Under the pieces are notes generated by a model. That model had not been told where the DNA came from. It was given only the letters and a program-made list of their open reading frames with translations, and did not search any database. The position numbers were made by a program, and so were the translations under genes. Source: Pirellula sp. (GTDB lineage Bacteria; Planctomycetota; Planctomycetia; Pirellulales; Pirellulaceae). Taken from it: a stretch of 64,000 bases of DNA. Positions 20,968-43,074 of this stretch are shown one piece after another (position 1 is the first letter of the stretch; every line of letters starts with the position of its first letter). The stretch lies in assembly GCA_021299695.1 (NCBI GenBank), contig JAJTEK010000007.1, positions 1 to 64,000 of the forward strand. The letters are read 5' to 3'.

Positions 20968-21315
20968 GTGAAGCTAATCATCGCCATCGTTCAGCCCGAT
21001 CGGCTCGAGCCGATCAAGGAAGCTTTGAGCCAAGTCGAGGTCTTTCGACTAACCGTTGTCGATTGCTTGGGATACGCCCGGCAAAAGGGGGATCAGAGTC
21101 TCCAACGTGCCCCGGACGGATCGATCCACCTTTTGAGGAAACTGCAGCTTCAAATCGCTGTCAACGAAGAGTTCGTCGAACCGACAGTGCAAGCCATCTT
21201 GCGCGGTGCCAAGACAGAACAGGATGGACGTATCGGCGACGGGAAAATCTTCGTCGTCCCCCTGGATCAATGCGTGCGAATTCGTACATCCGAACGAGGC
21301 CCCGAAGCGATTTAG
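20968..21315 (+). CDS. P-II family nitrogen-regulatory-like protein lacking the uridylylation tyrosine
   Basis: 115 residues from GTG 20968. It aligns end to end with GlnB/GlnK: MKLIIAIVQPDRLEPIKEAL at the start, YARQKGDQSL before the T-loop, the B-loop as GRIGDGKIFVVPL, and the C-loop as RIRTSERGPEAI. In the T-loop the usual LYRGAEY is LQRAPDGS, so Tyr51, the uridylylation site, is missing. It should still trimerise and may bind ATP/ADP through GDGKIF and 2-oxoglutarate through the T-loop base. An ABC transporter ATPase gene starts 25 bp downstream and may be co-transcribed, which points to an unusual transporter or membrane target. Confidence 0.85.
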   Translation: MKLIIAIVQPDRLEPIKEALSQVEVFRLTVVDCLGYARQKGDQSLQRAPDGSIHLLRKLQLQIAVNEEFVEPTVQAILRGAKTEQDGRIGDGKIFVVPLDQCVRIRTSERGPEAI

Positions 21316-21340
21316 TCGCTAGCCCAATAAGTGAAAATCG

Positions 21341-22078
21341 ATGTCAGACCAACCCCTTATTGAACTCAGAGATGTAGCCAAAGTCTATCAACTCGAAGAA
21401 GTCGAAGTCCGCGCCCTCGATGGCGTAGACCTTGTGATGCACCGGGGCGAATACTCCGCCTTGATCGGTCCGAGCGGTTCGGGCAAGTCCACGCTGATGA
21501 ATACCCTCGGATGCCTCGATCGTCCCACCCGCGGTAGTTACAAGCTCGGTGGTATCGAAGTCGTCAACATGGCCGCCGATGTACGCGCTCGAATCCGCAA
21601 CAAACAAATCGGATTTGTCTTCCAGAACTTCAACCTCCTTGCCCGAACCAGCGCTCTGGAAAACGTCGAGTTGCCGATGCTCTACGGCGAAGGAAGAACC
21701 AGTCGAGAGCGACGCGATCGGGCTAAAGAACTCCTGAGCTTGGTCGGACTCGGCGATAGGCTCGATCATCATCCCGGACAACTCTCTGGTGGCCAGCAGC
21801 AACGCGTGGCGATCGCTCGGGCCCTATCGACCGATCCGTCGATCCTCATGGGTGATGAACCGACCGGGAACCTCGACTCTCGCACCAGTCGCGAAGTGAT
21901 CGAACTTTTCAAGCAGCTCAACGAGACCAGGAATCTGACCGTCATCCTTGTGACTCACGATTTGGGCGTCGCGCGCAATGCCAAGCGGAACATCGTGCTG
22001 CGCGATGGGAAGATCATTTCCGATACGACGGATCACGAACAAGCAGCCGCGGCGCTCAAGGCGTCGTCGGAACTTTGA
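21341..22078 (+). CDS. ABC transporter ATP-binding protein (LolD/MacB-type)
   Basis: 245 residues with all nucleotide-binding motifs intact: Walker A GPSGSGKST (about 44-52), Q-loop FVFQNFNLLARTSALENVELP, signature LSGGQQQRVAIARAL (about 148), Walker B with catalytic Glu ILMGDEPTGNLDS, and H-loop TVILVTHDLG. The ENVELPMLYG stretch is typical of the LolD/MacB/FtsE group, which moves lipoproteins or acts in envelope stress. No FtsX/MacB-type permease is adjacent, since the following genes are convergent, so its membrane partner is elsewhere. A P-II-like gene precedes it by 25 bp. Confidence 0.88.
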   Translation: MSDQPLIELRDVAKVYQLEEVEVRALDGVDLVMHRGEYSALIGPSGSGKSTLMNTLGCLDRPTRGSYKLGGIEVVNMAADVRARIRNKQIGFVFQNFNLLARTSALENVELPMLYGEGRTSRERRDRAKELLSLVGLGDRLDHHPGQLSGGQQQRVAIARALSTDPSILMGDEPTGNLDSRTSREVIELFKQLNETRNLTVILVTHDLGVARNAKRNIVLRDGKIISDTTDHEQAAAALKASSEL

Positions 22079-22523
22079 TCGTCAGCGTATCGTCTGGCGG
22101 TCGTAGCTGCTCTCGCTGCGTCAATCGGACAAACTCGTGGGCTAAATAAGCCTTATCGACCCGCATGAGATTCTGTTCGAGCACATACTCGATCGCCGAA
22201 TGGACCTGAGAAAATCGCATCTCAAGGATCTTGGCCACCACCGCTTCGTTCTGCATGTTGTTGCTAAGGACTTCGACTTGATCCCCCAACCGATGCCCTT
22301 CGTCTCGGACCTGGTTCCATAAAATCGGCTTGACCCTAAACGACAATCGATCCCCGTAACGGACATGGTAGTACTCGCCGTCGAATGCGAAACGTTCCAT
22401 CACGTGGTCGCTGGGAATCCAACCATCGATCTTGTCGCGGTCCTCGGGGTGAAAGGCTTCGAGCCCTTGTTCGGGCCAGATCGCATAGATACCAAAATCC
22501 GGAAGTGTTGGCCAATCGATCAT
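22056..22523 (-). CDS. hypothetical protein at the end of the WXG100-like cluster
   Basis: 155 residues from ATG 22523 (MIDWPTLPDFGIYAIWPEQG). The ATG overlaps the stop of the upstream coiled-coil gene (ATGA), which fixes this start. The sequence is Trp/Tyr-rich near the front (YYHVRYGDRLSFRVKPILWN) and helical at the end (QVHSAIEYVLEQNLMRVDKAYLAHEFVRL-like). It resembles no family I know. The last 23 bp overlap the convergent ABC ATPase gene. Coupling to two T7SS-like small proteins suggests a shared process. Confidence 0.65.
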   Translation of the reverse strand: MIDWPTLPDFGIYAIWPEQGLEAFHPEDRDKIDGWIPSDHVMERFAFDGEYYHVRYGDRLSFRVKPILWNQVRDEGHRLGDQVEVLSNNMQNEAVVAKILEMRFSQVHSAIEYVLEQNLMRVDKAYLAHEFVRLTQREQLRPPDDTLTIKVPTTP

Positions 22524-23011
22524 CCCTCGTTCCCCCCTTGTGCTGCATATTGTTTGAGCGTCTCGATCCGTTGTTGCAAACGAGCCTGAGCCAATGGCAA
22601 AAGGGAATCCGATAGGTCCTCGAGTTGACGCACACTCAAGGTCGATTCCTGTTGAAACTGCTCCCATTGCATCGCCAATTGAGGGAGCAGTCTAACGCGC
22701 TGCTCGCACATCTGGCGACGGGCTGTGGCCCGCTCGAGGGCTTTGCGCTCGAACATGCAAGACGTTTCATCCTCGGCCCGGGACTTGGCTTGGCATCGCA
22801 GAAGGTCCCCACGAGCTTCGGTCCAGCGTTTTTGAGAAATACGCAGTTGGTCGGCCCAATACTCGGGCAATTCTTTGCTCAGCCACATCGAGATCCTCTG
22901 GAACTGATCTCGGATGTCGTCGGAGTTGTGCACAGAGGAGTCCCTGAGCGATTCAATCGCCGAGGAGAACCGCTCGAGCGCATCGATGCTTTCCACGTTG
23001 GCTTTAGCCAT
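22520..23011 (-). CDS. coiled-coil protein of the WXG100-like cluster
   Basis: 163 residues, almost entirely helical and highly charged (IESLRDSSVHNSDDIRDQFQ; FERKALERATARRQMCEQRV). No signal peptide or membrane segment. It overlaps the WXG100-like gene upstream by 8 bp and the next gene by 4 bp. Its N-terminal roughly 100 residues (with W43 and W52 in SMWLSKELPEYWADQL) could form a helical hairpin like the partner subunits of type VII secretion heterodimers, but this is an inference from layout and helix content only. Confidence 0.62.
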   Translation of the reverse strand: MAKANVESIDALERFSSAIESLRDSSVHNSDDIRDQFQRISMWLSKELPEYWADQLRISQKRWTEARGDLLRCQAKSRAEDETSCMFERKALERATARRQMCEQRVRLLPQLAMQWEQFQQESTLSVRQLEDLSDSLLPLAQARLQQRIETLKQYAAQGGNEG

Positions 23012-23285
23012 GACCTCGCTGGTACTCTTCGATAAGCTCGGCTTTGCGAATCAAATACGGAACGTGACGCTCGCTCGCGTCGATCAGGCGCGCCAGTTGC
23101 TTGAGCTCCTGTTCGAACTGGGCCGCAAATTTCGCGTGTTCCTGGTCCCGCCAGCTCGAGGACAACTGCTGCATCTGTCCGGAAAGCTTGGCCGTCGAGT
23201 CGGCCAAGTTCCCTGAGAAGCGTTTGAGCATCATCGCGAATTGACGCAGTTGCTCCGGGTCGACGATCGCTTGGGTCACGGCCAA
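23004..23285 (-). CDS. WXG100-like small helical protein
   Basis: 93 residues, the standard size of ESAT-6/WXG100 proteins. Two amphipathic helices flank a turn SSSWRDQEHAKFA at residues 42-54, where W45-R46-D47 replaces W-x-G. The second helix (FEQELKQLARLIDASERHVPYLIRKAELIEEY) carries the hydrophobic heptads and ends in a Y-x-x-G-like tail (EEYQRGHG), near the YxxxD/E secretion signal of type VII substrates. It is encoded 6 bp after a fatty acid desaturase gene and overlaps the next gene by 8 bp. No EccC/FtsK-type ATPase is in the window, so secretion is unproven. Confidence 0.7.
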   Translation of the reverse strand: MAVTQAIVDPEQLRQFAMMLKRFSGNLADSTAKLSGQMQQLSSSWRDQEHAKFAAQFEQELKQLARLIDASERHVPYLIRKAELIEEYQRGHG

Positions 23286-23291
23286 ATCCTC

Positions 23292-24329
23292 CTAGGCTGC
23301 TTCGCTGGCCGACCGCTCGGCTCGCTTGCGCAGCTTTTCTTGGTAACTTGCAAGATCGATCACGTTGGTCGCCAAGCCCAAGGCTCGCAGGAATCGGATC
23401 GCTTGGAAGGTGATATCGAACTCCCACCACTTGTGACCATGTTGAGCCAATCTCGGCAGGGCATGATGATTGTTATGCCATCCTTCGCCATAAGCAACGA
23501 TAGCAACCCACCAAAGATTGCGGCTGTCGTCGCGAGTCTCGTAGTTTTTGTATCCCCAAATGTGGGAAGCCGAATTGACGAACCAAGTCACATGCAAGAC
23601 CGCGACCATTCTAAGGCAAACGGCCCATACCAACCAGGAAATCGCCAAGCTTTGGCCGCCGATCAAGTAACCGATTCCGGCAAGAGCCGCTCCGAAGGCA
23701 ATGTGGATAGGCAAAAAGAATCGCTCGAAAAACATCAGACCCTTGTCCTTGACCAAGTCAGGTACCCAGTGCTTGGCAAATCCATCAAAGTCGCCGTTGT
23801 CGGTCGAAAAAGCCAACCAGAACATGTGTGCCCACCAAGGACCCTCGTGCGGCGAATGGGGATCCCCAGGTTGGTCGCTGTAAGCATGATGCTTGCGATG
23901 GTTGGCCGTCCAACTGATCGGACCACCCTCGCCGGCCAATACGCCGAAAAACGTCAGCGTGTATTTGACCCAGCCTGGAACCTCAAGCCCCGTGTGCGTC
24001 AAGAGCCGGTGATAGCCCAAGCAAATCCCAAGGCTACCGTTGATCCAGTGAATCAACACGCAGAGGAACAATCCACTCCAGGAAAAAGTCCAAGGAGCAG
24101 CAAGAGCGCCGAGGTGCAAGGCCACTAGCCAAGCGGTCGCTCCCCATTGGATGTGGTAAACCTCGGGGATCCGAGGCTGCGTCTTGGCACCCGATCGGAC
24201 CGTAACACTCGATTCGAACTCCTCGACGCTTGGACTCAATGCCGGTGTGAGCATCTCGGCATGATGGGCCTTGCGGGGGTTTCTAAGTTGATTCGTCGAC
24301 GATTCGTTTTCTGATGGATGACTTCGCAT
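23292..24329 (-). CDS. membrane fatty acid desaturase (acyl-CoA delta-9 type)
   Basis: 345 residues with the three His boxes of the membrane di-iron desaturases: HRLLTH (about 104-109), HRKHH (about 145-149) and HNNHH (about 287-291). The hydrophobic segments (TAWLVALHLGALAAPWTFSW, GLFLCVLIHWINGSLGICLG) form the usual four-helix membrane part. Such enzymes insert a cis double bond into saturated acyl chains with O2 and electrons from a reductase. It heads a four-gene minus-strand cluster: only 6 bp separate it from the WXG100-like gene. The N-terminal 45 residues are Ser/Glu-rich and not conserved in type. Confidence 0.9.
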   Translation of the reverse strand: MRSHPSENESSTNQLRNPRKAHHAEMLTPALSPSVEEFESSVTVRSGAKTQPRIPEVYHIQWGATAWLVALHLGALAAPWTFSWSGLFLCVLIHWINGSLGICLGYHRLLTHTGLEVPGWVKYTLTFFGVLAGEGGPISWTANHRKHHAYSDQPGDPHSPHEGPWWAHMFWLAFSTDNGDFDGFAKHWVPDLVKDKGLMFFERFFLPIHIAFGAALAGIGYLIGGQSLAISWLVWAVCLRMVAVLHVTWFVNSASHIWGYKNYETRDDSRNLWWVAIVAYGEGWHNNHHALPRLAQHGHKWWEFDITFQAIRFLRALGLATNVIDLASYQEKLRKRAERSASEAA

Positions 24330-24742: not shown

Positions 24743-26941
24743 ATGCTTCAGCAATCGAACGAACAGCCCTCTGGGTCGCAGTTGAACCAGCGCGAGATAC
24801 TCCGGGAGTTGCTCGCTGAACTCTTGCTGCGTCTGGATGTTCCGCACGAACTTTCCGCCGTCTCGCAGGCCCTCAGCGATGCGGTCCTCGACGATGCTCG
24901 CACGCCCGATGCGCTTGCGATGTCGGTTATGCGGGCAGGGACTGCTGTAGGCCTGAGATTGGCTCCGCTGGAGTTGAGCATGATCGATATATGGGAATTG
25001 CTCCTTGAGGAGTTCCCGGTAGCTGTTGTGTATCAGTCGAGCAGTGGTGAGCAGCAAGCTGCGGTCTTTTCGCACGTCGCTGGTGGGCGAGTCGATGCCA
25101 CATTGCTCTCGGCCAAGAACAAGCGATCCGATTCGCTTACCCGAAGAGAGCTCTCTAGTTTGCTTGCCCAAGGCCGATCGCATCAGTACTTTATCGCCGA
25201 GCCGTCGCTCAGTTGTGAGAAAATCACCTCGAGTCATGAGCCTGACCAAGCCCGAATTCCCAAGGTGCACGACGATCACGATTCGCATCATGAACATGCC
25301 GAACATATCTCTCCCCAGAAGCGATTCCTCAGGCTCCTTAAACTAGAGTCCAAGGACATTTGGACCTTGGGAGTCTTTACCCTAGTGGTTAGCTTTCTGG
25401 AGCTTGCGACTCCATTGGCCGTCGAGCAGATGGTCACGACGATCGGATTTGCATCGGTCATCCAGCCATTGATTTGGATTGCCGTTTTGCTTTTTGCAAT
25501 CTTGACCCTCTCGGCGGTGATCAAGGCTTTGCAGGTCTTCATCGTGGAAATCTTGCAGCGTCGGATGATCGTCCGGATCGTTGGTGACCTTGCGGAACGT
25601 CTCCCGAGGTTGGAGCGTTCTGCGATGGATGGAATTCACGGTCCGGAGTTGGCGAACCGATTTTTCGACGTCATGACGATGCAAAAGGCGACCGCATCGC
25701 TCCTGTTGGATCTGTTGGCTTTGGCGATTCAGACGTTGGCGGGATTGCTGTTGTTGGCAGTCTATAGCCCTTATCTTTTGGCCTTTGACCTGATCCTTTT
25801 GATGGGAATGACCGTGATGATCTATGCTCTGGGGCGAGGTGGCGTTCGGACGGCCATCGAAGAGTCCTTGATCAAGTATCGAATTGCCCACTGGTTGCAG
25901 GACATTATCGGCCATCCCAATGCGTTTCAGGTCCATGGGGGTGGGTCTTTGGCTGTCGATCGAGCGAATCGATTGATCGTTGAATACCTCAGCGCGAGGC
26001 GTAAGCATTTTGCGGTTTTGATCCGCCAATCGCTTTTCGCTTTGCTTCTCTATGCAGTATCGATCTCGGCATTGCTCTCGCTCGGCGGATGGCTGGTGCT
26101 CAACAATGCGCTGACGATCGGGCAGTTGGTAGCCAGCGTTTCGGTTGTTGCGGTTGTCGTCGGCGCATTTTCCAAAGTTGGCAAGAGCCTCGAGTCGTTC
26201 TATGACTTGATGGCAGCGACGGACAAAGTCGGGCACTTGATCGATCTGCCGACGGTCCCGCCGACTCGGCCCTTGGATGCGGGGATCGGACCGGTCGAGG
26301 TACGTTTCCGAGATCTGGTTCTTCATACCGGTAGAACTCACATTGCGATCCCGAATTTCACCATCCAATCGGCACAGCGTGTGGCGATTTGCTGCGAAGG
26401 CCACTCGGGCAAGACCATGCTCTTGCAGACCGTCGCCGGTCTGAGAAACCCTTATTCCGGTCTTTGCGAAATCGGCGGTATCGACTCGCGGGATGTCAAT
26501 CGATTTGCCGATGGATCCATGGTCGGCTTTGCCTCCGAGGTCGAAATCTTTCATGGAAGCCTTCAGGAGAACATCACCCTGAATCGACTTTCAATCCACG
26601 ACTCGGACCTTCGGGATGCCTTGCAACTGGCCGGGCTTTGGGACGAAGTCCTCTCGCTCCCGATGGGCCTAGATACGATGCTTCAGACCGACGGCTTTCC
26701 CTTGAGTCGGTCTCAAGCTCACCGATTGATGATCGCTCGAGCCATCGTCTCAAGACCCCGCTTGTTGCTCATCGACGGCAGTCTAGATAAGCTCGGTCCT
26801 AGGATGAGGCAGCGTGTTTGGGATAACCTCCGATCCGATCTGCAACCTTGGACCTTGCTAATCGTCACGCACGATATAGATATCATCAATAACTGCGATA
26901 AACGCATCGAACTTACTCCACCTACAGACGCTCATCACTAA
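24743..26941 (+). CDS. type-I-secretion-like ABC transporter with a degenerate ATPase domain
   Basis: 732 residues. Residues 1-170 are a soluble region possibly derived from a C39 peptidase-like domain but without its Cys/His. A His/Asp-rich linker (DHDSHHEHAEH) precedes the six-helix membrane domain (about 205-480). The nucleotide-binding domain (about 515-732) is unusual: Walker A is CEGHSGKTM instead of GxxGxGKS/T, the signature is LSRSQ instead of LSGGQ, and Walker B is LLLIDGSLD, lacking the catalytic Glu. The H-loop VTHD is kept. It is followed without a gap by an HlyD adaptor (stop-start overlap TAATG) and a TolC channel, so it is the inner-membrane part of a tripartite exporter. Confidence 0.83.
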   Translation: MLQQSNEQPSGSQLNQREILRELLAELLLRLDVPHELSAVSQALSDAVLDDARTPDALAMSVMRAGTAVGLRLAPLELSMIDIWELLLEEFPVAVVYQSSSGEQQAAVFSHVAGGRVDATLLSAKNKRSDSLTRRELSSLLAQGRSHQYFIAEPSLSCEKITSSHEPDQARIPKVHDDHDSHHEHAEHISPQKRFLRLLKLESKDIWTLGVFTLVVSFLELATPLAVEQMVTTIGFASVIQPLIWIAVLLFAILTLSAVIKALQVFIVEILQRRMIVRIVGDLAERLPRLERSAMDGIHGPELANRFFDVMTMQKATASLLLDLLALAIQTLAGLLLLAVYSPYLLAFDLILLMGMTVMIYALGRGGVRTAIEESLIKYRIAHWLQDIIGHPNAFQVHGGGSLAVDRANRLIVEYLSARRKHFAVLIRQSLFALLLYAVSISALLSLGGWLVLNNALTIGQLVASVSVVAVVVGAFSKVGKSLESFYDLMAATDKVGHLIDLPTVPPTRPLDAGIGPVEVRFRDLVLHTGRTHIAIPNFTIQSAQRVAICCEGHSGKTMLLQTVAGLRNPYSGLCEIGGIDSRDVNRFADGSMVGFASEVEIFHGSLQENITLNRLSIHDSDLRDALQLAGLWDEVLSLPMGLDTMLQTDGFPLSRSQAHRLMIARAIVSRPRLLLIDGSLDKLGPRMRQRVWDNLRSDLQPWTLLIVTHDIDIINNCDKRIELTPPTDAHH

Positions 26942-28410
26942 TGGCTACACTCACCGAATGGCCAAGGGCCGAATCCCACCAGACCGAATCCCAACACGCC
27001 GCATCGCCAACATCGCGTCGGATGATCCGTTTGAGGCCGACGAAGGAACTCGGTGAACGTTTCCCTGCAATGCACTTGGTCAGGTCCAGTTGGTACGCGC
27101 GAGGTCTAGCCCGAGCTTTGCTCTTGCTCATGGTCATGCTCTTGGCAGCCTCGCTCTTCCTGCCCTGGCAGCAATCGATCCGAGGCGATGGCCAAGTCAC
27201 CGCTAGGATGCCGCAATTGCGCCGCCAAGCCGTCGAGAGTCCTGCCAAAGGGATCATCTCCTCGCTTCGGCCCGATCTGCGAGAAGGCTCCTTGGTCGAA
27301 GAAGGAGAAATCATTATGGAAATCAAACCCTTCGCAGAAGACGCAGAAAGACTTACCCAGGAAGCCGTCAAGGCCGTTCAAGACAAAATCGGTTCCTATC
27401 GCCTCATCTATGAAAACAACCGCCTACAGGCCGATTCAGTTCGTATACAGGGACAACAGGCCATCGCAGGAGCCGAAGCCGAAGTCCGCAGCGCGACGAA
27501 CGCTTGGGAAAAAGCCACCCGAGATGTCGAAGACCAACTCGCTCGTTTCAACCAAGCCAAACTCGAACGAGAACGGTTCCAAGGCCTTGAAGTCGACGTG
27601 ATCGCTCAAGTCGATTTTTTCGCGCTCGAAAACAAAGAACTCAGCGAATTGGCCAAACTCGAGGGAAGCATGGCCAGTGCCAAAAAATCCTACAACGACC
27701 TCGACGCCAAAGAACGTGACCTCGAGGGCAAACGCAATGAAGTCAACCAGAAAATCCTCCAAGCACAAAACTACATCGACAAAGCCCTGACCGATGTCAA
27801 CAACGCCCAAAAAGAACTCAACGATGTGCTGACCAAACAAGGGGAACTCAATCGACTCAAAGTTCCTAGCCCGAGCCGCGGACGAATCCAATCCATCCGA
27901 GGCCAAGCCGGTACCAACTCCGTGAAAGAAGGGGATATCCTCTTTGAAGTCGTTCCGGAAACCGAAGATCTTGCCGTCGAAATGACCGTCCGAGGAGTCG
28001 ATGCCCCCTTGATCCACGTCGGCGATCCAGTTCGCCTCCAATTCGAAGGGTGGCCCGCAATCCAATTCGTCGGCTGGCCATCGGTCGCCGTCGGCACCTT
28101 TCCGGGCGAAGTCATTGCTATCAATCCGACCGACTCAGGACGAGGAATCTTCAAGATCGTTGTCGGACCCCCTCAAAATGGGAAAAGCAGTCAAAATTCA
28201 ACGAATGTGACGAATGTAACGGATATTCAGTGGCCCGACAGTCGATACCTCCGACAAGGAGTCAGAGCTAACGGTTGGGTAATACTCAAGACAGTGCCAC
28301 TAGGTTACGAGATATGGCGTCAACTCAATGGATTTCCGATCACGATCAGCGATTCGGAGCCCGGCAAGGAAAAAGAATCCAAGGAGCCCAAGGCTCCGAA
28401 GATGAAGTAA
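26941..28410 (+). CDS. HlyD-family membrane fusion protein
   Basis: 489 residues. One membrane helix (about 55-80, RALLLLMVMLLAASLFLPW) is followed by a lipoyl-type half (GKGIISS-like PAKGIISSLRPDLREGSLVE), a long coiled coil (about 135-300; alternating Gln/Glu/Lys-rich heptads), the second lipoyl half (RLKVPSPSRGRIQSIRGQAG) and a beta-barrel domain (DPVRLQFEGWPAIQFVGWP). This is the periplasmic adaptor that links the upstream ABC transporter to the downstream TolC-type channel. Its ATG overlaps the ABC stop (TAATG). Confidence 0.87.
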   Translation: MATLTEWPRAESHQTESQHAASPTSRRMIRLRPTKELGERFPAMHLVRSSWYARGLARALLLLMVMLLAASLFLPWQQSIRGDGQVTARMPQLRRQAVESPAKGIISSLRPDLREGSLVEEGEIIMEIKPFAEDAERLTQEAVKAVQDKIGSYRLIYENNRLQADSVRIQGQQAIAGAEAEVRSATNAWEKATRDVEDQLARFNQAKLERERFQGLEVDVIAQVDFFALENKELSELAKLEGSMASAKKSYNDLDAKERDLEGKRNEVNQKILQAQNYIDKALTDVNNAQKELNDVLTKQGELNRLKVPSPSRGRIQSIRGQAGTNSVKEGDILFEVVPETEDLAVEMTVRGVDAPLIHVGDPVRLQFEGWPAIQFVGWPSVAVGTFPGEVIAINPTDSGRGIFKIVVGPPQNGKSSQNSTNVTNVTDIQWPDSRYLRQGVRANGWVILKTVPLGYEIWRQLNGFPITISDSEPGKEKESKEPKAPKMK

Positions 28411-28433
28411 TTACGCTAGCAAATCGCGATGGG

Positions 28434-30419
28434 GTGGCTCTTCGCACCGCAGCACTCTCAATCCCATGCTCGAGGTTCTCGGGCCTCGGAGTATCGGCAC
28501 TGAAATTTGCACAAGGGCTCCTGCTGTTAGTGGTCTCGCCTTGGGCCTTGGCCCAGGAGGCTCTGCCGAAGGCCGGCGAGCTGCAGCCACCTACAGTTAA
28601 GCCAACTCCCGTTCAGCCACCACTCGGGGAGAATCCGCCCTCGAGTACGATCCCTTTGAAAATCTCGGGCAAGTCGCTCGAGGAGCTCGAGCAGATGCTC
28701 AAAGCATCGCGAGTCGAGCTCGGCCAACGATTGGCCGACCAAGACGCGCTGTCAAAGGATGTGCAGGAGTCCGACCCGCTGCGCGATGGAGAGAAGCGAT
28801 TTTTGGAGCTCGAGGCGATCATCAACAATCGACGCGATCAGCGTCAAAAGGAGCTTTTGCAGCTTCCTAGGGCTCCGTTGGGACCACGAATACCCACAGG
28901 TCCCGAGTTGGTACAACCCGTGCCCGCCCCTGAGACCAACTCCGGGCCGTCCGGCTCGGCGATGCCTCGGGGCGATTTGGAACTTGGCGAATCGCTCTTG
29001 CTTGCCGATGTGATCGCTTCGACGTTCCGATCGTTTCCAGAGATTGAGATTGCGCGACTCGAAGCGAACGTCGCACGTGGCGAGATTACGCAGGCCAATG
29101 GAGCCTACGATTTGCACTTGGATTATTTCAGCCTCAATCAGCCCGTGGGTTACTATGAAAATAGCCGCTCTGGAGTGAGTCTATCGAGGCAATTGTGGTG
29201 GGGTGGGTATGCCATCGCAGGTTATCGAATCGGCCGAGGTGTGTTTGAACCTTGGTACAAGGAGCGAGAAACAAACAAAGGGGGCGAGTTTCGCGTCGGA
29301 TGGGTACAACCTCTTTTGCAAGGTCGAGCGATCGACCCGTATCGGGTCGCCTTGTTTCAATCCAATCTCAATCAACAAGCCGTTGCGCCGGAGATCCAGC
29401 AAAACGTCTTAGGAGCAAGTCTTGCGGCAGCCTCTGCTTACTGGGCTTGGGTCCAGGCCGGCAATGTGCTCCGTTCTCAAGAGCAATTGCTGGAACTGGC
29501 TATCAAGCGCAACGACGGACTTAACAAGTTGTTTGAGCGTGGGCTTTCGACTCGCCAAGAGCTCTCGATCAATGCGCAGACGATTTCCGAGCGACAGTTA
29601 AAGGTTTTCGAAGCGAGGCAGAAATTCCGAGATACAGCGTTCAAATTGGCTGTGTTCCTGCGAGACGAAAGCGGCACACCGATGCTCGCTCGCCCCGAAT
29701 GGCTTCCAGGGTACTTTCCTCGCATCGAGAGGCTCGAACTTCAGGACTTTGAGACGGCGTTTCTCGAGGCCCAACAAAGGCGCCCAGAGTTGGCGTTAAT
29801 CAATATCGACTTGCAAAAACTTCGATGGGACTTGGAACTGGCTCGCAACCAAACCCTTCCCAACCTGGACTTCACCATTCAGGCCGTTCAGGATGTGGGA
29901 GATCAAGCCACCTCGCTCAACGACAAGCAGGACTTTGTACTCGAGTCCGGGGTCGTCGGGGGAGTTCCGATCCAACGCCGCAAAGCCAGAGGTAAGATCG
30001 AGAGCACGTTGGCCAAGATCCAGCAGGTCGAGCAGAAACGCTGGTTCATGTCCAATAAGATCGAAATGGATCTGAGGGTCGCACGCAACGCGCTCGAAGT
30101 CAGCCGCGAGATGGTTCTGCGAAGCGATCAATTGCTCCGTGAAACCCGAGAGACCTTGGAGTATTTTCGACGAGAGTTCGCTTCGGGAAATCAGGACTTC
30201 TTGTTCCTATTGACCCAAGAGGCCAAAGCGACTGAGGCGGAAATCAAGTTGCTCGACGCAGAACGTGAGTACTACTTCGCTTTAGCCATGCTCCAGGCGG
30301 TCTTAGGGCTCGATCCGCTCGAACAATCCCTGGGCTTGGATCAATCCGTCGCAGGTCAGCAGCCTCAGGTCGTTGGTCCCGGGGTAGTTCCCGGGGTAGT
30401 TCCCGAACCGGCCCGGTAG
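28434..30419 (+). CDS. TolC-family outer membrane efflux protein
   Basis: About 661 residues from GTG 28434, which I chose because it follows the hlyD stop and gives a signal peptide (ALKFAQGLLLLVVSPWALAQ). The open frame reaches back to 28275 but there overlaps hlyD by 136 bp. Residues about 50-190 are a Pro/Glu-rich periplasmic extension with coiled-coil character. From about 180 onward the TolC repeats are recognisable: SFPEIEIARLEANVARGEIT, LQGRAIDPYRVALFQSNLN, and LARNQTLPNLDF, with long helices to about 640 and a Val/Pro-rich tail. It completes the exporter. No candidate substrate gene is adjacent. Confidence 0.8.
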   Translation: MALRTAALSIPCSRFSGLGVSALKFAQGLLLLVVSPWALAQEALPKAGELQPPTVKPTPVQPPLGENPPSSTIPLKISGKSLEELEQMLKASRVELGQRLADQDALSKDVQESDPLRDGEKRFLELEAIINNRRDQRQKELLQLPRAPLGPRIPTGPELVQPVPAPETNSGPSGSAMPRGDLELGESLLLADVIASTFRSFPEIEIARLEANVARGEITQANGAYDLHLDYFSLNQPVGYYENSRSGVSLSRQLWWGGYAIAGYRIGRGVFEPWYKERETNKGGEFRVGWVQPLLQGRAIDPYRVALFQSNLNQQAVAPEIQQNVLGASLAAASAYWAWVQAGNVLRSQEQLLELAIKRNDGLNKLFERGLSTRQELSINAQTISERQLKVFEARQKFRDTAFKLAVFLRDESGTPMLARPEWLPGYFPRIERLELQDFETAFLEAQQRRPELALINIDLQKLRWDLELARNQTLPNLDFTIQAVQDVGDQATSLNDKQDFVLESGVVGGVPIQRRKARGKIESTLAKIQQVEQKRWFMSNKIEMDLRVARNALEVSREMVLRSDQLLRETRETLEYFRREFASGNQDFLFLLTQEAKATEAEIKLLDAEREYYFALAMLQAVLGLDPLEQSLGLDQSVAGQQPQVVGPGVVPGVVPEPAR

Positions 30420-36911: not shown

Positions 36912-38246
36912 ATGCTTCTTACCGATCAACAATGGGATCAACTGGAATCGATATTCGAAAAAGTGACGCTCGGCAGCCACGGACGCCAAGCACTCCTCAT
37001 CCCGATCGCAAGATCGGTGCGTCGGGACGTGGCTGACTCGCCTTTTGCCGAGTGGTTGGCAATCCCCGGAGCGGATGATTTTGTTGTGATCATGCGATAC
37101 GTGATTCAAAAGGCCCAAGAGCCAGCACTTGAGAAAGCTCTCCTTCAAGGTCTTAAATCAAGAGCTTTGAATCAACAAGATCAAAACACTCTAACTTCTT
37201 GGCTTGAATCGCCGTCGCAACACCAACGCTCCCCCGACTTCGAGAGCACTGACGATGTGATTAAAACCCTATCGATCAGCCAAGGTGCAGAGAAGGTGCT
37301 TAGGCAGAGCATCCAACTCTTTGAGGAAAATGCAAACGATAGAAAGCAATTCGTAATCGGTACTATCTCGAATGCGCTCTCCTGTGCTAAAGATCTCGCA
37401 TCGAATCTAAAAAATTCAGGATGCCTCAATCTATCGCCAAATGCAACCGGTGATGATATTGCCAAGGCGCTAGTAGGGAACGACCTTCCGGTCAAGCTTC
37501 TAGATGATATTGTGGACCACTGGAGCAGGTTCCCCAATGCAAACAAATTTATTGCGGAAGATGCGTCCGAGTTCCATCTGATTAAAGAGATCTTAGTCAT
37601 GGAATCCCTCCCCGCCGAGGATCGAAGTCAGTTTCGACATGCGTTGCTCGAAGCAAACGATCACGCTTCCAGTCCGGGCCCCTCGTCTGATTTGGATGTT
37701 ACTGTCCATAAGGAAGACGGGCGCATGCTTGATTACATCGAAAAACTCATTCGGCAGACGTGGTTGTCATTAACTATGGAACAAGACAGACTTTCCGAAG
37801 CACTTCGTATTTTGCTGAGCCATCGTAAAGCAGACCTCCATGAAAAGACGAGATTGCTGAGTAAAGTTCGATTTGTAACGGAGCCTAGCGAGGCAGATGA
37901 CAACCAGTATCGTAATGGGTTGACCGCAAACTCAATTGCTGAACATCTGATCAATGCTCTTGCGGGCAGGGTGCGAAAAGTTGAGAATCCATTGGCAGTG
38001 CTAACTCGAGATCTCGATCGAATGTCCCGGGAGAAGGTACTCGTGGTCATGACCGTGGCCGACAAACGTGAACGACTAAGCTATCTTGATTTGCTAAAAC
38101 AGTCCTTTCCAAGCGTGCAACCCATTGGGCTCAGTCCGTACGAAGGGGACATCTATGCCCAAGTGACCCATCACTTGGAATGGATCGAGAAAAAAATCCC
38201 TAGGGAATACGTTATGAAACTCGATGACGGACCTGCCCATCGGTAA
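36912..38246 (+). CDS. helical adaptor-like protein of the MoxR-FGE cassette
   Basis: 444 residues, no signal peptide or membrane segment. Residues 1-100 (LLTDQQWDQLESIFEKVTLG, FAEWLAIPGADDFVVIMRYV, LEKALLQGLKSRALN) form a compact alpha-helical unit like the N-terminal effector-associated (death-like) adaptor domains of bacterial conflict systems; this is a resemblance of pattern, not a proven match. The middle is helical and variable. Residues about 370-435 (LVVMTVADKRERLSYLDLL, VQPIGLSPYEGDIYAQV) look like an alpha/beta segment. It starts the cassette and is followed 43 bp later by a MoxR ATPase. I cannot assign an activity. Confidence 0.72.
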   Translation: MLLTDQQWDQLESIFEKVTLGSHGRQALLIPIARSVRRDVADSPFAEWLAIPGADDFVVIMRYVIQKAQEPALEKALLQGLKSRALNQQDQNTLTSWLESPSQHQRSPDFESTDDVIKTLSISQGAEKVLRQSIQLFEENANDRKQFVIGTISNALSCAKDLASNLKNSGCLNLSPNATGDDIAKALVGNDLPVKLLDDIVDHWSRFPNANKFIAEDASEFHLIKEILVMESLPAEDRSQFRHALLEANDHASSPGPSSDLDVTVHKEDGRMLDYIEKLIRQTWLSLTMEQDRLSEALRILLSHRKADLHEKTRLLSKVRFVTEPSEADDNQYRNGLTANSIAEHLINALAGRVRKVENPLAVLTRDLDRMSREKVLVVMTVADKRERLSYLDLLKQSFPSVQPIGLSPYEGDIYAQVTHHLEWIEKKIPREYVMKLDDGPAHR

Positions 38247-38289
38247 CACGACCACCTAACTTTCTTTCTGATCACCCAGCGGATTAACC

Positions 38290-39360
38290 GTGAAACCAAC
38301 TGAAAATCAATCGGTCCCGATTCGTACTCCTAACGGAGACGAGTTCTGCCACTTGCTGAGCAACCAAGAACAAGACGCGATTTATGGAGCCATCGCCGCC
38401 AATCGACCACTCCTGGTCCGCGGTGAACCCGGACTGGGCAAGTCCCAACTCGCTCTTGCAGCCTCCTCGCTGCTGAACCGTCCCTACAAAACGTTCACCA
38501 TCGATTCGCATACCGAAGCCAGAGACCTGCTCTATTCCTTCGATGCCGTTCAGCGGCTTGCCGAAGCCCAAGTCGCAGCAAACTACTTTCGTGACGATCG
38601 CGAAGCACTACGCAAAGCGATTCGTGTTCGACGGTTTGTATCGCCCGGTCCTCTATGGTGGGCTATCTCCTGGACTTCGGCAAATAAGCAGCAGAAAATT
38701 TACAACTCGAATCGACAGGACGAAACTCCCGTGTTTGCAAGTCCTCAGCCGCCAGGAACCTGGGAGTCCAAGCACGGGATCGTCATTCTGATTGATGAAA
38801 TCGATAAAGCAGACTCGAGCTTGCCCAACGGTCTGCTCGAAGTACTCGGTTCGCACCAGTTCTTGCCAGCGGGCTTTAGGAAACCGATCGTCTCAGAGAG
38901 CAATACCCAGCCTCCCCTGATCGTTATCACCACCAATCGGGAGCGGGCGATGCCCCCAGCGTTCCTCCGGCGCTGCTTGATCCTCGACCTTGTGCTTCCG
39001 CAGTACGAGCTAAGAAAAAATTCACCGGATCCTTCCAGCGATGAACTCGGAGAAAGTAATCCCTTCATCGATCATTTCGTGCAGCTTGGACAAGCCCATT
39101 TTGGGACACAAATCCCGGAAAGCGTGTATTCGAGTTTGGCGGAACTGCTGCATGAAGACCGTACCATGGCGGAGGAATCCCAAACAGGGACCAAGCCTGG
39201 TCCGGCCGAGTACATCGATCTGCTCAGGGCCATGCACCAATGGGTTGCATCGGACGCACCCACCAACACGCCTTTGCCTAGTTCCGACGAGGCTAAGTAC
39301 GAAGACCTTTGCCGAAGGCTCAAAGCGTTCTTTTTCTCGAACAAGTACCGTGAGTTTTAG
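38290..39360 (+). CDS. MoxR-type AAA+ ATPase
   Basis: 356 residues from GTG 38290. Walker A is GEPGLGKSQ (45-53), Walker B VILIDEIDKADS (about 165-176), sensor 1 is in PPLIVITTNRERAMPPA, and the arginine-finger/sensor region is FLRRCLILDLVLP. This is the MoxR group, whose members act as chaperone-like remodelers usually with vWA partners. The loop after Walker A (IDSHTEARDLLYSFDAVQRL) is typical. The partner here would be one of the flanking proteins: the 444-residue protein 43 bp upstream, or the FGE protein whose ATG is 3 bp downstream. Confidence 0.88.
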   Translation: MKPTENQSVPIRTPNGDEFCHLLSNQEQDAIYGAIAANRPLLVRGEPGLGKSQLALAASSLLNRPYKTFTIDSHTEARDLLYSFDAVQRLAEAQVAANYFRDDREALRKAIRVRRFVSPGPLWWAISWTSANKQQKIYNSNRQDETPVFASPQPPGTWESKHGIVILIDEIDKADSSLPNGLLEVLGSHQFLPAGFRKPIVSESNTQPPLIVITTNRERAMPPAFLRRCLILDLVLPQYELRKNSPDPSSDELGESNPFIDHFVQLGQAHFGTQIPESVYSSLAELLHEDRTMAEESQTGTKPGPAEYIDLLRAMHQWVASDAPTNTPLPSSDEAKYEDLCRRLKAFFFSNKYREF

Positions 39361-39363
39361 CGG

Positions 39364-42300
39364 ATGGATGACTTAGCGATTCCTCGAACACGCTCCCAGG
39401 GTGACTATTGGCGCGGTGATTTGCTCCGGACGATGCTCTTTTTTGAAAGTAGCCAGCGCGATTTTGTCTCGTTTGCCCTTCTACGCGGGTACGATTTCGA
39501 ATCGCACTTGCCCATCGAAGAACCGCCGATCCTCCCCCCGTCGGTCGTTCCATTAGAGGAACGGGTCGATGAAAAGGTCACCGACTCGCCATCGGTGATT
39601 CAACCCGTCTCCGAGCGACTCTGGGTGCCACTGCGTTATCTCGTAGATCGATTCGCTCCTGAAACGTATCTCGGTATCCATGGACTCGACAAAACGCAGA
39701 ACAAAGAAGTCGCGGTGATTCGCGATGCGCAGATACTCCAACCACAAGTGAAATATCTCGCGGCTTGGCCTGAATTGCGCAACCGTCTTGATCCTCTTTT
39801 GGGCTTCCCGAAGCGTAATCGTCGTTTAGATACCGAGGTTTTGATCAAGCGAATCTCACGAGGCGATCCCATCCGCCAAATCCCCTTCTATCAAAGGAAG
39901 CGAACCCACGATCAAATCACCGTCATCAAGGAACATGCTCTGCACTGTGCTCCCTACCGACTCGATCAGGAAATGGTAGTTGAGCATCTTTCAAAAGCGA
40001 CCGCTCGAGGAGGGTTGCAGGTTCTCGATGCGTTCTTCCCCTATGGCTTGACCAATCCTGCATCCGGCGATTCGTCGACGGTCATCCGGCGGCGGGAGGT
40101 GGAACCCACGCCGGGTAGCCATATCCTGATCCTTGGCGATTTGGGTTTGTTGCTCAAGATCCAGGACGCGTTCGATCGGGATGCCGTCGAGTGGTGGTAC
40201 CGGGCATGCCGCCGTTGGAGTTCGCGTGGGTGCAAGGTATTTGCGTTGGTTCCCTTGGGTTGTGAGCGAGTACCCGCGAAACTCAGGGCCTGGGTTGAGC
40301 CGATCGCTTGGCAAGGCGATGCGGTCAGGAGTTTGACCCATCAGCAGCAGGAACAAGGGGTCACTCGTTTGCTGACGATGGCTTATCCCGCTCAACAGAT
40401 AGAGCCAGGTTTATTGAGAGAGTTTCGGCGTCTGTGCGCGGGCTTGGAGGATGCATCGATCGAGGCTCGATTCTGGCAGGATTGGCGGCATGGTGGTCCG
40501 ACGTACAACGCGGTCAAGCAAACCGAGGCATCTGCTCGCAAAGCGTTTGAGACAGACTTCGAGCAACTCGATGATTTGACCATCACTCAAATACTTCGCT
40601 CGATGCGCCATTATCGAATCGCAAGAGGTTACAGCGTGCTTTGGCAGATGGAGCTGATGAATCTTCCGAAGCGTCTTCGTGATCTGATCGATCCGAACAG
40701 CGCCGAGCAAGACATAGCGAATCAGACCTACCAAGCCTTATGCTTTCAGATGCACCATGGAGGAACCTATGGTTTGCGAGATCGATTGATGTCGCTGAGT
40801 CTCCATGCAAGCGAGCATGCGATCGAGGATTCGGATATCGGGTCGGCGGTTCGAACCATTCGAAACAGGTGCTTGCCTGATGCCAAGCGGAGCGACCAAA
40901 CGCGTTTCGTCGAGTTGCCACCGTCGGTCGAAACGCGCAAGGTACAGATCGAATGCACACCCTCGGGGATCGGATTACGGGGAGTTGGCAAATCCGCATT
41001 GAATTCGATTGCTGTTGGTTCCAGCAACAGGGTCACGATGGCAAGCGGCCGGCCGGTTTTGGAGTTATATGTTCCCGGGGGATCGATTGAGAATCCGATA
41101 AGATCTTTTTGGAAATCCGGTAAGAAGCCCGATTGGGTCAGCGCGTTTGGTAAGGATGACTATGGGCTATGGTGCGAGTTCCAAGTGCCAAACCGCTGGT
41201 CTGACGATAAAGCCGCAAGCAACGATCGCAACGGGAGTGATCCTCAGGGCTTTGTCACTCAGCGGATGAGATGGATCAAGCCTGGGAAGTTCGTGATGGG
41301 TTCGGATGCGAGTACTAAAGAGTTATGGATTGGAGATGAGACAGAGCATGAAGTAACGTTGACGCAAGGCTTCTGGATGGCCGATACACCGTGTACGCAG
41401 GGGCTTTGGATGGGTGCCGGTGCACGTGAGAATCGCAGTCGATTTCCAGGGTTCAGCAATCCAGTGGAGCGAGTATCGTGGGAGGATTGCCAAGGGTGGC
41501 TCAAGGGACTTGGGGAAGTTTTTCCACTGATGCAGCCATCGCTTCCGACCGAGGCTCAGTGGGAGTACGCTTGCCGGGCTGGTTCGACCGGCCGGTACAG
41601 CTTTGGTGATGAAGAGCGGGAACTAAAGAGGTACGCTTGGTATGATGAGAACAGCGGTCATACCACGCACGCTGTTGGTGAGAAGCTGCCCAATGCATGG
41701 GGATTGTACGATGTGCATGGCAATGTGTGGGAGTGGTGTCAGGATTGGTATGGCGAGTATTCAGCAGAGCGAATAACAGACCCGACTGGCCCTAGCGAGG
41801 GCACGTCGCGCGTGGTTCGCGGTGGGGGTTGGTACGACCCCGCGCGGTATCTGCGTTCGGCTTGTCGGAGCAGGCTCGCCCCGGGCGATCGGCTCAGCCT
41901 CCTGGGCTTCCGCCTCCTGAGTTCTGCTCTAGGGGCCGAGCCGAGCGAGCGAGCGATGCTGCCCGAAGCGGAGCCGGGCACAGAGCGAGCGAGGATCGGC
42001 TCGGCCGAATTGGACTATGGTTTTTTGCGTTCGATCGATTTGGATGCAGTTGGCCAGACGACTGCTGAACACCAGTTCACAGAGATCGAGGTGAACGCTT
42101 ACACGAGCATCCGCGTGGTGAGCGATCAAGAAGGATACCAGTTTGATCGGCTTGAGAAACCCGACTGGGCGGTGGAGTTTGGACACGATTCGTATGGGTT
42201 GTACTCGGTATTCGAGGTGGAGCCCGAGAAGAAGGGAACACCGGTACGTCAGACGATGCGCTGGATCCCTCCGGGGAAATTTGTCATGGGGTCAGCAAAG

Positions 42301-43074
42301 GGTAGGGATTACGGTCGAGGGAATGAGAGTCCTGAGCATGAAGTAGTGATCACGCAAGGGAATTGGATGTTCGATACGCCTTGTACCCAAGGGTTATGGA
42401 TGGCGCTGATGGGTAAGAACCCAAGTTACTTTCCGGATCCAGAACGACCAGTGGAGCGAGTTGGCTGGGAGGATGCTGTAGGGTTTGCACAGAAGCTGAA
42501 CGCTTGGTTTGAGAAGCGGAATTCAAAATCCCGAGGCAAGAAGGTTTTGGGTTGGAATGAGTTGTCTTTTCGATTGCCGACGGAGGCCGAGTGGGAGTAC
42601 GCATGCCGAGCAGGCACTCAGACGGAAACGTATTTGGGTGATTTAGAGATTCCTGGTGATGCAAATGCACCGCTGTTGGATCGGATCGGCTGGTACGGTG
42701 GTAATTCGGGGTTGGATTATGATTTGGAAAGATCGGTTTCACTGGATCTACCTTGGCTTAAGGATCGACAGTATCCGGACAAGATGGGAGGTACTCGAAA
42801 AGTAGGTGGGAAAGAGCCGAACAATTGGGGGTTGTATGATATGCTTGGGAACGTTTGGGAATGGTGTAAGGACTGGTATTCGGATCACATTCCATCATCC
42901 GTCGCCGTCGATCCGATCGGACCACCTGAAGGGAATCGCAAAGTGTTTCGAGGCGGTGGATGGAACTCACCTGCTAGATATCTCCGAGCTGCGTATCGTC
43001 ACAACCACAGTCCTAGTCCGATGGCAAGTACCATGGGCTTCCGCCTCCTGAGTTCTGCTCGTCAGCCCAAGTGA
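39364..43074 (+). CDS. large protein with two C-terminal non-catalytic FGE-sulfatase (C-type-lectin-fold) domains
   Basis: 1236 residues. Residues about 1-560 have no clear family. About 200-340 includes alpha/beta text (SHILILGDLGLLLK, CKVFALVPLGCERVP) that could be a vWA-like or MoxR-partner module. FGE domain 1 spans about 633-855 (MRWIKPGKFVMGS, LPTEAQWEYACRAGS, LYDVHGNVWEWCQDWYGEY, VVRGGGWYDPARYL, LGFRLLSSA). Domain 2 spans about 962-1234 with the same landmarks. Neither has the active-site Cys pair of true FGE (YDPARYLRSACRS has only one Cys), so both are probably ligand-binding. The linker after domain 1 is a low-complexity GAGCGA run. The C-terminal loops are the variable-region sites described in the findings. 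Only 3 bp separate it from the MoxR gene. Confidence 0.9.
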   Translation: MDDLAIPRTRSQGDYWRGDLLRTMLFFESSQRDFVSFALLRGYDFESHLPIEEPPILPPSVVPLEERVDEKVTDSPSVIQPVSERLWVPLRYLVDRFAPETYLGIHGLDKTQNKEVAVIRDAQILQPQVKYLAAWPELRNRLDPLLGFPKRNRRLDTEVLIKRISRGDPIRQIPFYQRKRTHDQITVIKEHALHCAPYRLDQEMVVEHLSKATARGGLQVLDAFFPYGLTNPASGDSSTVIRRREVEPTPGSHILILGDLGLLLKIQDAFDRDAVEWWYRACRRWSSRGCKVFALVPLGCERVPAKLRAWVEPIAWQGDAVRSLTHQQQEQGVTRLLTMAYPAQQIEPGLLREFRRLCAGLEDASIEARFWQDWRHGGPTYNAVKQTEASARKAFETDFEQLDDLTITQILRSMRHYRIARGYSVLWQMELMNLPKRLRDLIDPNSAEQDIANQTYQALCFQMHHGGTYGLRDRLMSLSLHASEHAIEDSDIGSAVRTIRNRCLPDAKRSDQTRFVELPPSVETRKVQIECTPSGIGLRGVGKSALNSIAVGSSNRVTMASGRPVLELYVPGGSIENPIRSFWKSGKKPDWVSAFGKDDYGLWCEFQVPNRWSDDKAASNDRNGSDPQGFVTQRMRWIKPGKFVMGSDASTKELWIGDETEHEVTLTQGFWMADTPCTQGLWMGAGARENRSRFPGFSNPVERVSWEDCQGWLKGLGEVFPLMQPSLPTEAQWEYACRAGSTGRYSFGDEERELKRYAWYDENSGHTTHAVGEKLPNAWGLYDVHGNVWEWCQDWYGEYSAERITDPTGPSEGTSRVVRGGGWYDPARYLRSACRSRLAPGDRLSLLGFRLLSSALGAEPSERAMLPEAEPGTERARIGSAELDYGFLRSIDLDAVGQTTAEHQFTEIEVNAYTSIRVVSDQEGYQFDRLEKPDWAVEFGHDSYGLYSVFEVEPEKKGTPVRQTMRWIPPGKFVMGSAKGRDYGRGNESPEHEVVITQGNWMFDTPCTQGLWMALMGKNPSYFPDPERPVERVGWEDAVGFAQKLNAWFEKRNSKSRGKKVLGWNELSFRLPTEAEWEYACRAGTQTETYLGDLEIPGDANAPLLDRIGWYGGNSGLDYDLERSVSLDLPWLKDRQYPDKMGGTRKVGGKEPNNWGLYDMLGNVWEWCKDWYSDHIPSSVAVDPIGPPEGNRKVFRGGGWNSPARYLRAAYRHNHSPSPMASTMGFRLLSSARQPK
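41851..41929 (+). other. putative diversified variable region in FGE domain 1 (copy B)
   Basis: Codons 830-855. Versus the relic at 36387, seven codons differ only at positions 1 and 2 while the third base is kept: AGC/TCC, AGG/GGG, CTC/GTC, GAT/TTT, CTC/AAC, AGC/GTC, CTC/ACC. The invariant stretch of 27 bases (41903-41929) follows. This is the layout of a retroelement variable region ending in its homing sequence. Confidence 0.65.
42961..43062 (+). other. putative variable region in FGE domain 2 (copy C)
   Basis: The terminal FGE loop (NSPARYLRAAYRHNHSPS to MGFRLLSSAR) has diverged from copies A and B also at third positions, but its last 29 bases (43034-43062) equal copy A and its last 27 equal copy B. 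It may be an older or differently templated variable region that shares the homing sequence. Confidence 0.45.

What the first reader, a model, noticed from the sequence alone, without database searches (positions are those of the whole stretch)
22056..24329. WXG100-like gene cluster attached to a fatty acid desaturase
A 93-residue helical hairpin protein with WRD in place of WxG and a Y-containing tail is followed, with overlaps, by a coiled-coil protein and an unknown Trp/Tyr-rich protein, all 6 bp behind a desaturase gene. This suggests a type VII-like small-protein set in a planctomycete, without an EccC ATPase nearby.
Basis: inference. Interest (0 to 1): 0.6.

Follow-up and report, generated by a model that had tools for sequence, protein, structure and literature searches.

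The report
Scattered type VII-like secretion parts
A small protein in this planctomycete belongs to the WXG100 family of type VII secretion, and its partners, including an EccC-like motor ATPase, are present in the same genome but scattered, pointing to a minimal type VII-like machine that recurs across this phylum of two-membrane bacteria.

Summary
The small protein (WXG-A; 91 aa from a GTG, not 93) passes Pfam's WXG100 cut-off. The coiled-coil gene behind it is its regular partner. The desaturase and the third protein (DUF6960) flank it only in close relatives; DUF6960 occurs independently.

The missing ATPase exists. The conserved set is WXG-A, coiled-coil hairpin (CC), a second WXG-like protein (WXG-B) and an EccC-like ATPase, in one locus in many relatives, but on three contigs here (C44, C177, C220). 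Of 149 family genomes, 88 have any part and 81 all four, even where unlinked. In a 392-genome phylum draw, 57 of 63 with WXG-A or the ATPase have both.

The ATPase resembles EccC in sequence and has an EccC-type DUF domain, one intact Walker A and hydrophobic segments. WxG and YxxxD/E motifs are absent; no EccB or YukD match in this genome.

A 2012 footnote already notes WXG with three-domain ATPases in planctomycetes (PMC3482391). The dispersed two-WXG system is a new variant of a known kind. Secretion is inferred.

The parts
23004..23279 (-). WXG-A: WXG100-family protein, 91 aa, WRD motif, GTG start
   Evidence: PF06013 36.0 bits, cut-off 27.3; relatives in 84 of 149 family genomes; 37-row alignment
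23288..23293 (-). AGGAGG ribosome-binding site of WXG-A, overlapping the desaturase stop codon
   Evidence: sequence read; function inferred
22520..23011 (-). Coiled-coil partner (CC), 163 aa, predicted long two-helix hairpin, invariant YW and C-terminal Tyr
   Evidence: no Pfam or NCBIfam family; relatives in 82 of 149 family genomes; 30-row alignment; AF2 mean pLDDT 91.9, helices 6-76 and 82-162
22056..22523 (-). DUF6960 (PF22283) protein, 155 aa; neighbour, judged not part of the system
   Evidence: 32.6 bits, cut-off 27; presence not associated with WXG-A
23292..24329 (-). Fatty acid desaturase, 345 aa; neighbour, judged not part of the system
   Evidence: PF00487 73.4 bits; in 8 of 80 relatives' loci, the most similar ones only

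Best explanation
The 91- and 163-residue proteins are two of four core parts of a minimal type VII-like system of Planctomycetota: WXG-A, a long helical-hairpin protein (CC), a second small WXG-like protein (WXG-B) and an EccC-like motor ATPase. In this genome the parts lie on three contigs. Shown by computation: family membership, gene order in relatives, co-retention even when unlinked, and EccC-like features of the ATPase. Inferred: WXG-A and WXG-B pair as a heterodimer, as EsxA and EsxB do. The pair and the CC hairpin engage the ATPase, which is anchored by a hydrophobic hairpin between coiled coils. ATP hydrolysis by its one domain with an intact Walker A motif then drives these helical proteins, or a cargo carried by them, across the inner membrane. 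The desaturase and DUF6960 genes are local neighbours that probably share transcription here.
For: WXG-A passes PF06013. The own WXG-B on C177 scores 23.9 bits on PF06013, under the cut-off of 27.3, and the WXG-B profile aligns with that of WXG-A round W-x-D (probability 71). WXGA, CC, WXGB, ATPase in this order in 25 of 80 named loci, plus 2 where the CC frame is extended upstream. In 149 family genomes: all four in 81, any in 88. Of the 12 single-contig genomes that carry the set, only 2 have it in one place and G130 has all four apart. Phylum draw of 392: both WXG-A and ATPase 57, one only 6, neither 329. The ATPase profile matches solved EccC and YukB chains (E 1e-42 to 4e-30) better than FtsK (5e-12); nearest NCBIfam model EccCa; best Foldseek match EccC; model residues 11-314 match the EccC5 DUF domain, Z 16.9, rmsd 3.7, 229 aligned. 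By a hydropathy scan 25 of 27 core ATPases have two separate hydrophobic segments before the DUF domain and the other 2 have one; each of the 27 has a single Walker A motif.
Against: No secretion, interaction or expression data. EccB over cut-off in 0 of 15 genomes and YukD in 1 of 15. W-x-D replaces W-x-G, and YxxxD/E is absent from the C-termini. No toxin-like cargo was recognised beside the core genes, and in the own genome only WXG-A and WXG-B match WXG100 below E 0.001. WXG-A misses NCBIfam's T7SS target cut-off (28.1 of 44.85). VIA-align ties FtsK and EccC for the NTPase part (Z 31.3 and 31.2), the Foldseek match to EccC has a low whole-chain TM-score (0.38), and solved EccC/EssC fragments such as 9jv8 and 5fv0 score below FtsK in the profile search. 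Presence statistics ignore relatedness. Seven of 88 genomes lack one or more parts; three are at least 93% complete (G115 without CC, G120 without WXG-A, G088 with only an ATPase match that carries stops).
Confidence: 0.65

Rival explanations
1. The ATPase and the helical proteins work inside the cell as a conflict or signalling machine, not as an exporter, like the related vWA variant.
For: A variant in L051, L052 and on a Caballeronia plasmid (L207) shares a WXG100 protein, an FtsK ATPase, vWA genes and a 436-443 aa protein with a nuclease-like end; L051 and L207 also have PP2C, and L207 a kinase and a DUF1887 CARF gene. In its three ATPases a hydropathy scan finds no hydrophobic pair; L052 has one window of 1.75, inside the protein.
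Against: The core ATPases keep hydrophobic segments near residues 210-370; round 32 loci with the ATPase no other gene family recurs in more than 5; WXG-A has one plasmid match among 72,556 records, to the variant, and none in the phage records or among 26 pattern-matched viral stretches.
Confidence: 0.16
2. The ATPase is a DNA translocase (cell division or DNA transfer) and the WXG and CC proteins are its regulators.
For: The NTPase domain is of the FtsK/SpoIIIE family (PF01580 99 bits in a relative's ATPase), and the FtsK motor ties with EccC by VIA-align (Z 31.3, 279 aligned, against 31.2, 507 aligned).
Against: Sequence profile and Foldseek E-value prefer EccC, the EccC DUF domain is present, and 60 of the 62 family genomes without this ATPase still have a weaker FtsK-family match, probably the housekeeping FtsK.
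Confidence: 0.11
3. The desaturase, WXG-A, CC and DUF6960 genes form a functional membrane-lipid operon.
For: Tight spacing and overlaps in this genome and close relatives.
Against: Desaturase in 8 of 80 loci, DUF6960 in 6 of 80; DUF6960 presence not associated with WXG-A in 149 genomes; WXG-A has other neighbours in other members of the genus, such as L038 and L096.
Confidence: 0.04
4. Chance similarity of short helical proteins to WXG100.
For: Helical bias; weak matches to unrelated helical Pfam families in the same scan, the best 21.4 bits.
Against: Pfam cut-off passed, next family about 15 bits lower; W, D and Y invariant in 37 rows; co-retention with an EccC-like ATPase.
Confidence: 0.03

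Closest known systems
Type VII secretion systems T7SSa (ESX) and T7SSb (Ess/Yuk)
   Same: WXG100 protein(s) plus an EccC/EssC-type ATPase with a DUF domain and tandem FtsK-type NTPase domains; two small WXG proteins, as in T7SSa.
   Different: W-x-D instead of W-x-G, no YxxxD/E, no EccB or YukD match in the own genome, no FHA hit in the one core ATPase scanned with Pfam, two rather than three NTPase modules after the DUF domain (my reading of the model; the count for EccC is recalled), coiled-coil-like stretches round the hydrophobic segments, and scattered genes.
T7SSc to T7SSj of Gram-positive bacteria (PMC11217815, passages read)
   Same: ATPase (TsxC) and WXG100 (TsxA) as the near-universal pair; variable accessory sets, in T7SSc with a vWA protein.
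   Different: Described from Bacillota and Actinomycetota; ATPases said to have four C-terminal NTPase domains; most carry a YukD-like TsxB. Here another phylum, with a constant CC protein and WXG-B.
[quoted passage not shown] mobile versions of T7SS' (PMC3482391, Table 1 footnote 6, passages read)
   Same: Planctomycetes are named there; three ATPase modules with only the middle one intact.
   Different: Here WXG-A comes with WXG-B and CC, the ATPase has hydrophobic segments, and the set is widely retained in two draws of planctomycete genomes. The vWA variant (L051, L052, L207) fits the 'mobile' wording better.

Membership tests
WXG100 (PF06013) | Pfam model over its cut-off | tested here: met
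   WXG-A 36.0 against 27.3 bits. Own WXG-B 23.9, below the cut-off; the WXG-B of L047 had no PF06013 match at E 1.
WXG100 / T7SS target (TIGR03930) | NCBIfam subfamily cut-off | tested here: not met
   28.1 against 44.85 bits.
WXG100 | W-x-G motif | tested here: not met
   W-x-D in 37 of 37 WXG-A rows and 167 of 167 distinct WXG-B open frames; W-x-G in 0 of 37 and 3 of 167.
T7SS | EccC/EssC-type ATPase in the genome | tested here: met
   G000:C220, E 1e-254 to the planctomycete profile; that family matches EccC best by sequence and Foldseek, with an EccC DUF domain. Below NCBIfam's EccCa cut-off (116.6 of 509).
T7SS | C-terminal YxxxD/E export signal | tested here: not met
   0 of 37 WXG-A, 0 of 30 CC, 0 of 167 WXG-B frames in the last 25 residues. 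Other signals not tested.
T7SSa (ESX) | EccB, EccD, EccE, mycosin | tested here: inconclusive
   EccB: 0 of 15 genomes over cut-off, but no control genome rang over the cut-off either. EccD, EccE and mycosin not searched.
T7SSb | YukD/EsaB | tested here: not met
   No match in the own genome; 1 of 15 genomes over cut-off (G097), far from its WXG-A and ATPase; B. subtilis is among the controls that rang.
T7SSb | FHA domains on EssC | tested here: inconclusive
   No FHA model among Pfam matches up to E 1 of one core ATPase (L047) and one variant ATPase (L051); the own ATPase was not scanned with Pfam.
T7SSb | EssA, EssB, EsaA | not tested
   No profile search made; no further gene family recurs in more than 5 of 32 ATPase loci.
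T7SS | ATPase-dependent secretion of WXG100 proteins | not testable with these tools
   Needs an experiment.
FtsK DNA translocase | FtsK as nearest relative | tested here: not met
   EccC E 1e-42 against FtsK 5e-12 by sequence profile; Foldseek 4e-31 against 5e-16. VIA-align ties them for the NTPase part.
LXG (for CC) | Pfam LXG match | tested here: not met
   No Pfam family up to E 10 for the own CC; one relative (L056) had only two weak unrelated matches.

The most novel reading that the evidence does not exclude
A phylum-wide minimal type VII class of a two-membrane lineage: a WXG-A/WXG-B pair, a third long hairpin and a membrane-anchored EccC variant with one NTPase module fewer, no other known component, used for a general envelope function and not for toxin delivery, and stable enough to survive full dispersal of its genes.
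Probability: 0.42. Interest if true: 0.8.

Novelty: new variant of a known kind. Interest (0 to 1): 0.6.

Why it matters
Type VII secretion is mainly described for Gram-positive bacteria and mycobacteria; a survey of secretion systems left ESX out as absent from LPS-bearing two-membrane bacteria (PMC4793230, passages read). A four-part version in Planctomycetota (two-membrane cells, recalled) would be the smallest natural set known to me, would test which parts of the machine are essential, and raises the question of how such a cell uses it. Because the genes are often unlinked, finders that require one cluster would miss it.

Tried and rejected
DUF6960 and the desaturase as components: rejected by presence and neighbourhood counts. 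The DUF6960 count depends on the Pfam threshold: G010 and G074 have a relative of the window protein beside CC (48% identity) that one search missed. A TPR protein (about 300 aa) is near WXG-A in 10 of the 21 neighbourhoods and is present in the own genome (C105, 225 bits), but strong matches also occur without WXG-A (G011, G075, G088), so it is an accessory at most. CC against the PDB by VIA-align gave only generic coiled coils (best Z 11.8, an SMC arm). CC profile against the variant 436-443 aa proteins: L052 matched (E 2e-10 over residues 30-185), L051 and L207 not at E 10, and profile comparison with L051 was weak (probability 16.7), although the three variant proteins are related to each other (32-58% identity). 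CC and WXG-A share a weak N-terminal resemblance (probability 65.7 over 38 columns). PADLOC matches of the ATPases (SspH, mad8, HerA) are domain-level and were not taken as membership. Neighbour clustering used a simple longest-frame gene caller that drops small overlapping genes. Literature: full-text searches listed no paper on a planctomycete WXG100/EccC system that I recognised, beyond the footnote in PMC3482391. I opened passages of PMC3482391, PMC11217815, PMC3935865, PMC4631099, PMC12419801, PMC4793230 and PMC7755280 only; the other hits were seen as listings, and the library holds only open-licence papers. Mantel correlation of WXG-A and ATPase distances in 17 genomes where the two lie in different loci is 0.90, 0 of 2000 permutations reaching it; 6 of the 17 are one genus, so it shows shared descent more than interaction.

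Rows dropped or chosen: A3 used 37 of 43 distinct WXG-A frames (the rest lost in script de-duplication; starts of several set by hand); A4 30 of 39 distinct CC frames (near-duplicates, frames over 230 aa and L062 left out); A5 29 of 36 ATPases; A6 11 of 16 TPR frames; A2 6 WXG-B and A1 5 ATPases, hand-picked. The strong-ATPase count of 87 of 149 uses my own line (E at or below 1e-60). A1 contains the two variant ATPases; G021 and G139 carry both kinds.
Full report
What is there. On the minus strand lie a desaturase (24329-23292), a 91-aa protein (23279-23004), a 163-aa coiled-coil protein (23011-22520) and a 155-aa protein (22523-22056). The AGGAGG lies 8 bases before a GTG, which gives 91 aa and not 93; the genes overlap by 8 and 4 bp. 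The 91-aa protein (WXG-A) passes Pfam WXG100 at 36.0 bits against 27.3; the third is DUF6960 at 32.6 against 27; the coiled-coil protein (CC) has no family. WXG-A is below NCBIfam's T7SS target cut-off (28.1 of 44.85).

What belongs together. WXG-A has relatives in 84 of 149 genomes of the family. A CC frame is found by profile in 28 of the 30 loci kept from that search (L007-L036), whereas the desaturase and DUF6960 matched only in the own locus and in three of its genus (L008-L010). In a second set of 80 named loci the desaturase is in 8 and DUF6960 in 6. Wider neighbourhoods gave the full order: WXG-A, CC, a second small W-x-D protein (WXG-B), and an ATPase of about 1,300 aa with an FtsK/SpoIIIE domain. 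Among the 80 named loci, 25 show all four in this order and 2 more do so apart from an upstream-extended CC frame; 30 show WXG-A with CC only, 15 WXG-A only, and 8 WXG-A, CC and WXG-B, one of these with the TPR gene. Nearly all record titles are of Planctomycetota; one (L180) says Acidobacteria and a few say only 'bacterium'. I did not check the binning.

The own genome. It has the ATPase on contig C220 (E 1e-254, 1,413-aa frame) and WXG-B on contig C177 (PF06013 23.9 bits). In all 7 genomes of the genus in the draw WXG-A, WXG-B and the ATPase are on different contigs or at least 94 kb apart (coordinates). G105, a single-contig genome, has them near 3.60, 2.28 and 0.22 Mb.

Co-retention. In the same 149 genomes the ATPase is strong in 87, WXG-B is found in 83 and CC in 82. 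All four are in 81 and any in 88; the seven partial genomes are G063, G088, G089, G094, G098, G115 and G120. DUF6960 shows no positive association (31, 53, 31 and 34 of 149; Fisher p 0.24). The Fisher values for the core pairs (below 1e-34) ignore shared ancestry. The 12 single-contig genomes with the set show 2 single clusters and 10 dispersed arrangements, one with all four apart (linkage means starts within 6 kb). In a draw of 392 genomes of the phylum WXG-A and the ATPase are each in 60 and both in 57; WXG-A only in G417, G424 and G441, ATPase only in G365, G479 and G518.

The ATPase. A 29-row profile matches solved EccC and YukB chains at 1e-42 to 4e-30 and FtsK at 5e-12; some EccC and EssC fragments score lower than FtsK. 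NCBIfam's nearest model is EccCa, below its cut-off. An AlphaFold2 model of the own protein's last 897 residues (mean pLDDT 85.8, pTM 0.75) has EccC as best Foldseek match (4e-31, TM-score 0.38; FtsK 5e-16). VIA-align gives FtsK motor 31.3 (279 aligned) and EccC 31.2 (507 aligned), a tie, for the NTPase part, and the EccC5 DUF domain 16.9 (229 aligned, rmsd 3.7) for residues 11-314. I read this as a DUF domain, one intact and one degenerate NTPase module. The tandem aligns with residues 414-1052 of one EccC structure and, at a lower Z of 27.1, with 766-1315 of another, labelled ATPases 2 and 3, so two modules are present where EccC has three; that is my reading. Each of 27 core ATPases has one Walker A motif; 25 have two separate hydrophobic segments before the DUF domain and 2 have one, by a hydropathy scan and not a trained predictor. 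The sequence round these segments looks coiled-coil-like by eye.

The small proteins. W-x-D is universal in the WXG-A rows and WXG-B frames, and YxxxD/E is absent. WXG-A and WXG-B profiles align round it (probability 71). CC is modelled as a two-helix hairpin with helices of 71 and 81 residues (mean pLDDT 91.9, pTM 0.70).

How it probably works (inference). A WXG-A/WXG-B pair binds the ATPase, CC acts as a further hairpin substrate or adaptor, and the ATPase moves them or their cargo across the inner membrane. In the vWA variant a CC-like stretch heads a nuclease-like protein in L052 (E 2e-10), which would fit a targeting role, but its relatives in L051 and L207 did not match, so this is weak. 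The cargo and the crossing of the outer membrane are unknown.

What is known. A 2012 survey of polymorphic toxins (PMC3482391, passages read) notes in a table footnote that planctomycetes and others have solo WXG domains with a YueA-like ATPase with three HerA/FtsK domains, only the middle active, which appear to be mobile versions of T7SS. T7SSc to T7SSj (PMC11217815, passages read) are from Gram-positive bacteria. A 2014 WXG100 survey (PMC3935865, passages read) found targets almost only in Actinobacteria and Firmicutes with a few Chloroflexi. A 2016 secretion survey excluded ESX as absent from LPS-bearing diderms (PMC4793230, passages read). WXG-A has no match in the phage records, none among viral contigs, and one plasmid match in 72,556 records, to the vWA variant. 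So the general kind was known; the dispersed, widely retained form with WXG-B, CC and a hydrophobic-segment ATPase is what I add.

Noticed in passing
L051 (G021:C3), L052 (G139:C837), L207 (plasmid NZ_CP049321.1 23992-42249): A related variant: vWA gene(s), WXG100, a 436-443 aa protein with a nuclease-like GxxxE...D...ExK end (read by eye), an FtsK ATPase; PP2C in L051 and L207; on the plasmid also a DUF1887 CARF protein, kinase and AAA gene; L051 lies beside two transposase-like frames. It may be a mobile conflict system.
   Followed up: partly
window 24743-30419 +: ABC transporter, HlyD-like and TolC-like genes divergent from the desaturase, resembling a type I secretion set; no peptidase domain was listed by Pfam for the ABC protein.
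   Followed up: no
window 36912-43074 +: A 444-aa protein, an AAA/MoxR-like ATPase and a 1236-aa protein with two FGE-sulfatase-like repeats, resembling vWA-MoxR-type conflict modules (read by eye, labels recalled).
   Followed up: no
window 20968-22078 +: A PII-family regulator (78 bits) directly before a LolD/MacB-like ABC ATPase with no evident permease gene adjacent (by eye).
   Followed up: no
G000:C105:1836-2591 -: TPR protein of the kind that precedes WXG-A in many relatives, here on another contig (225 bits).
   Followed up: partly
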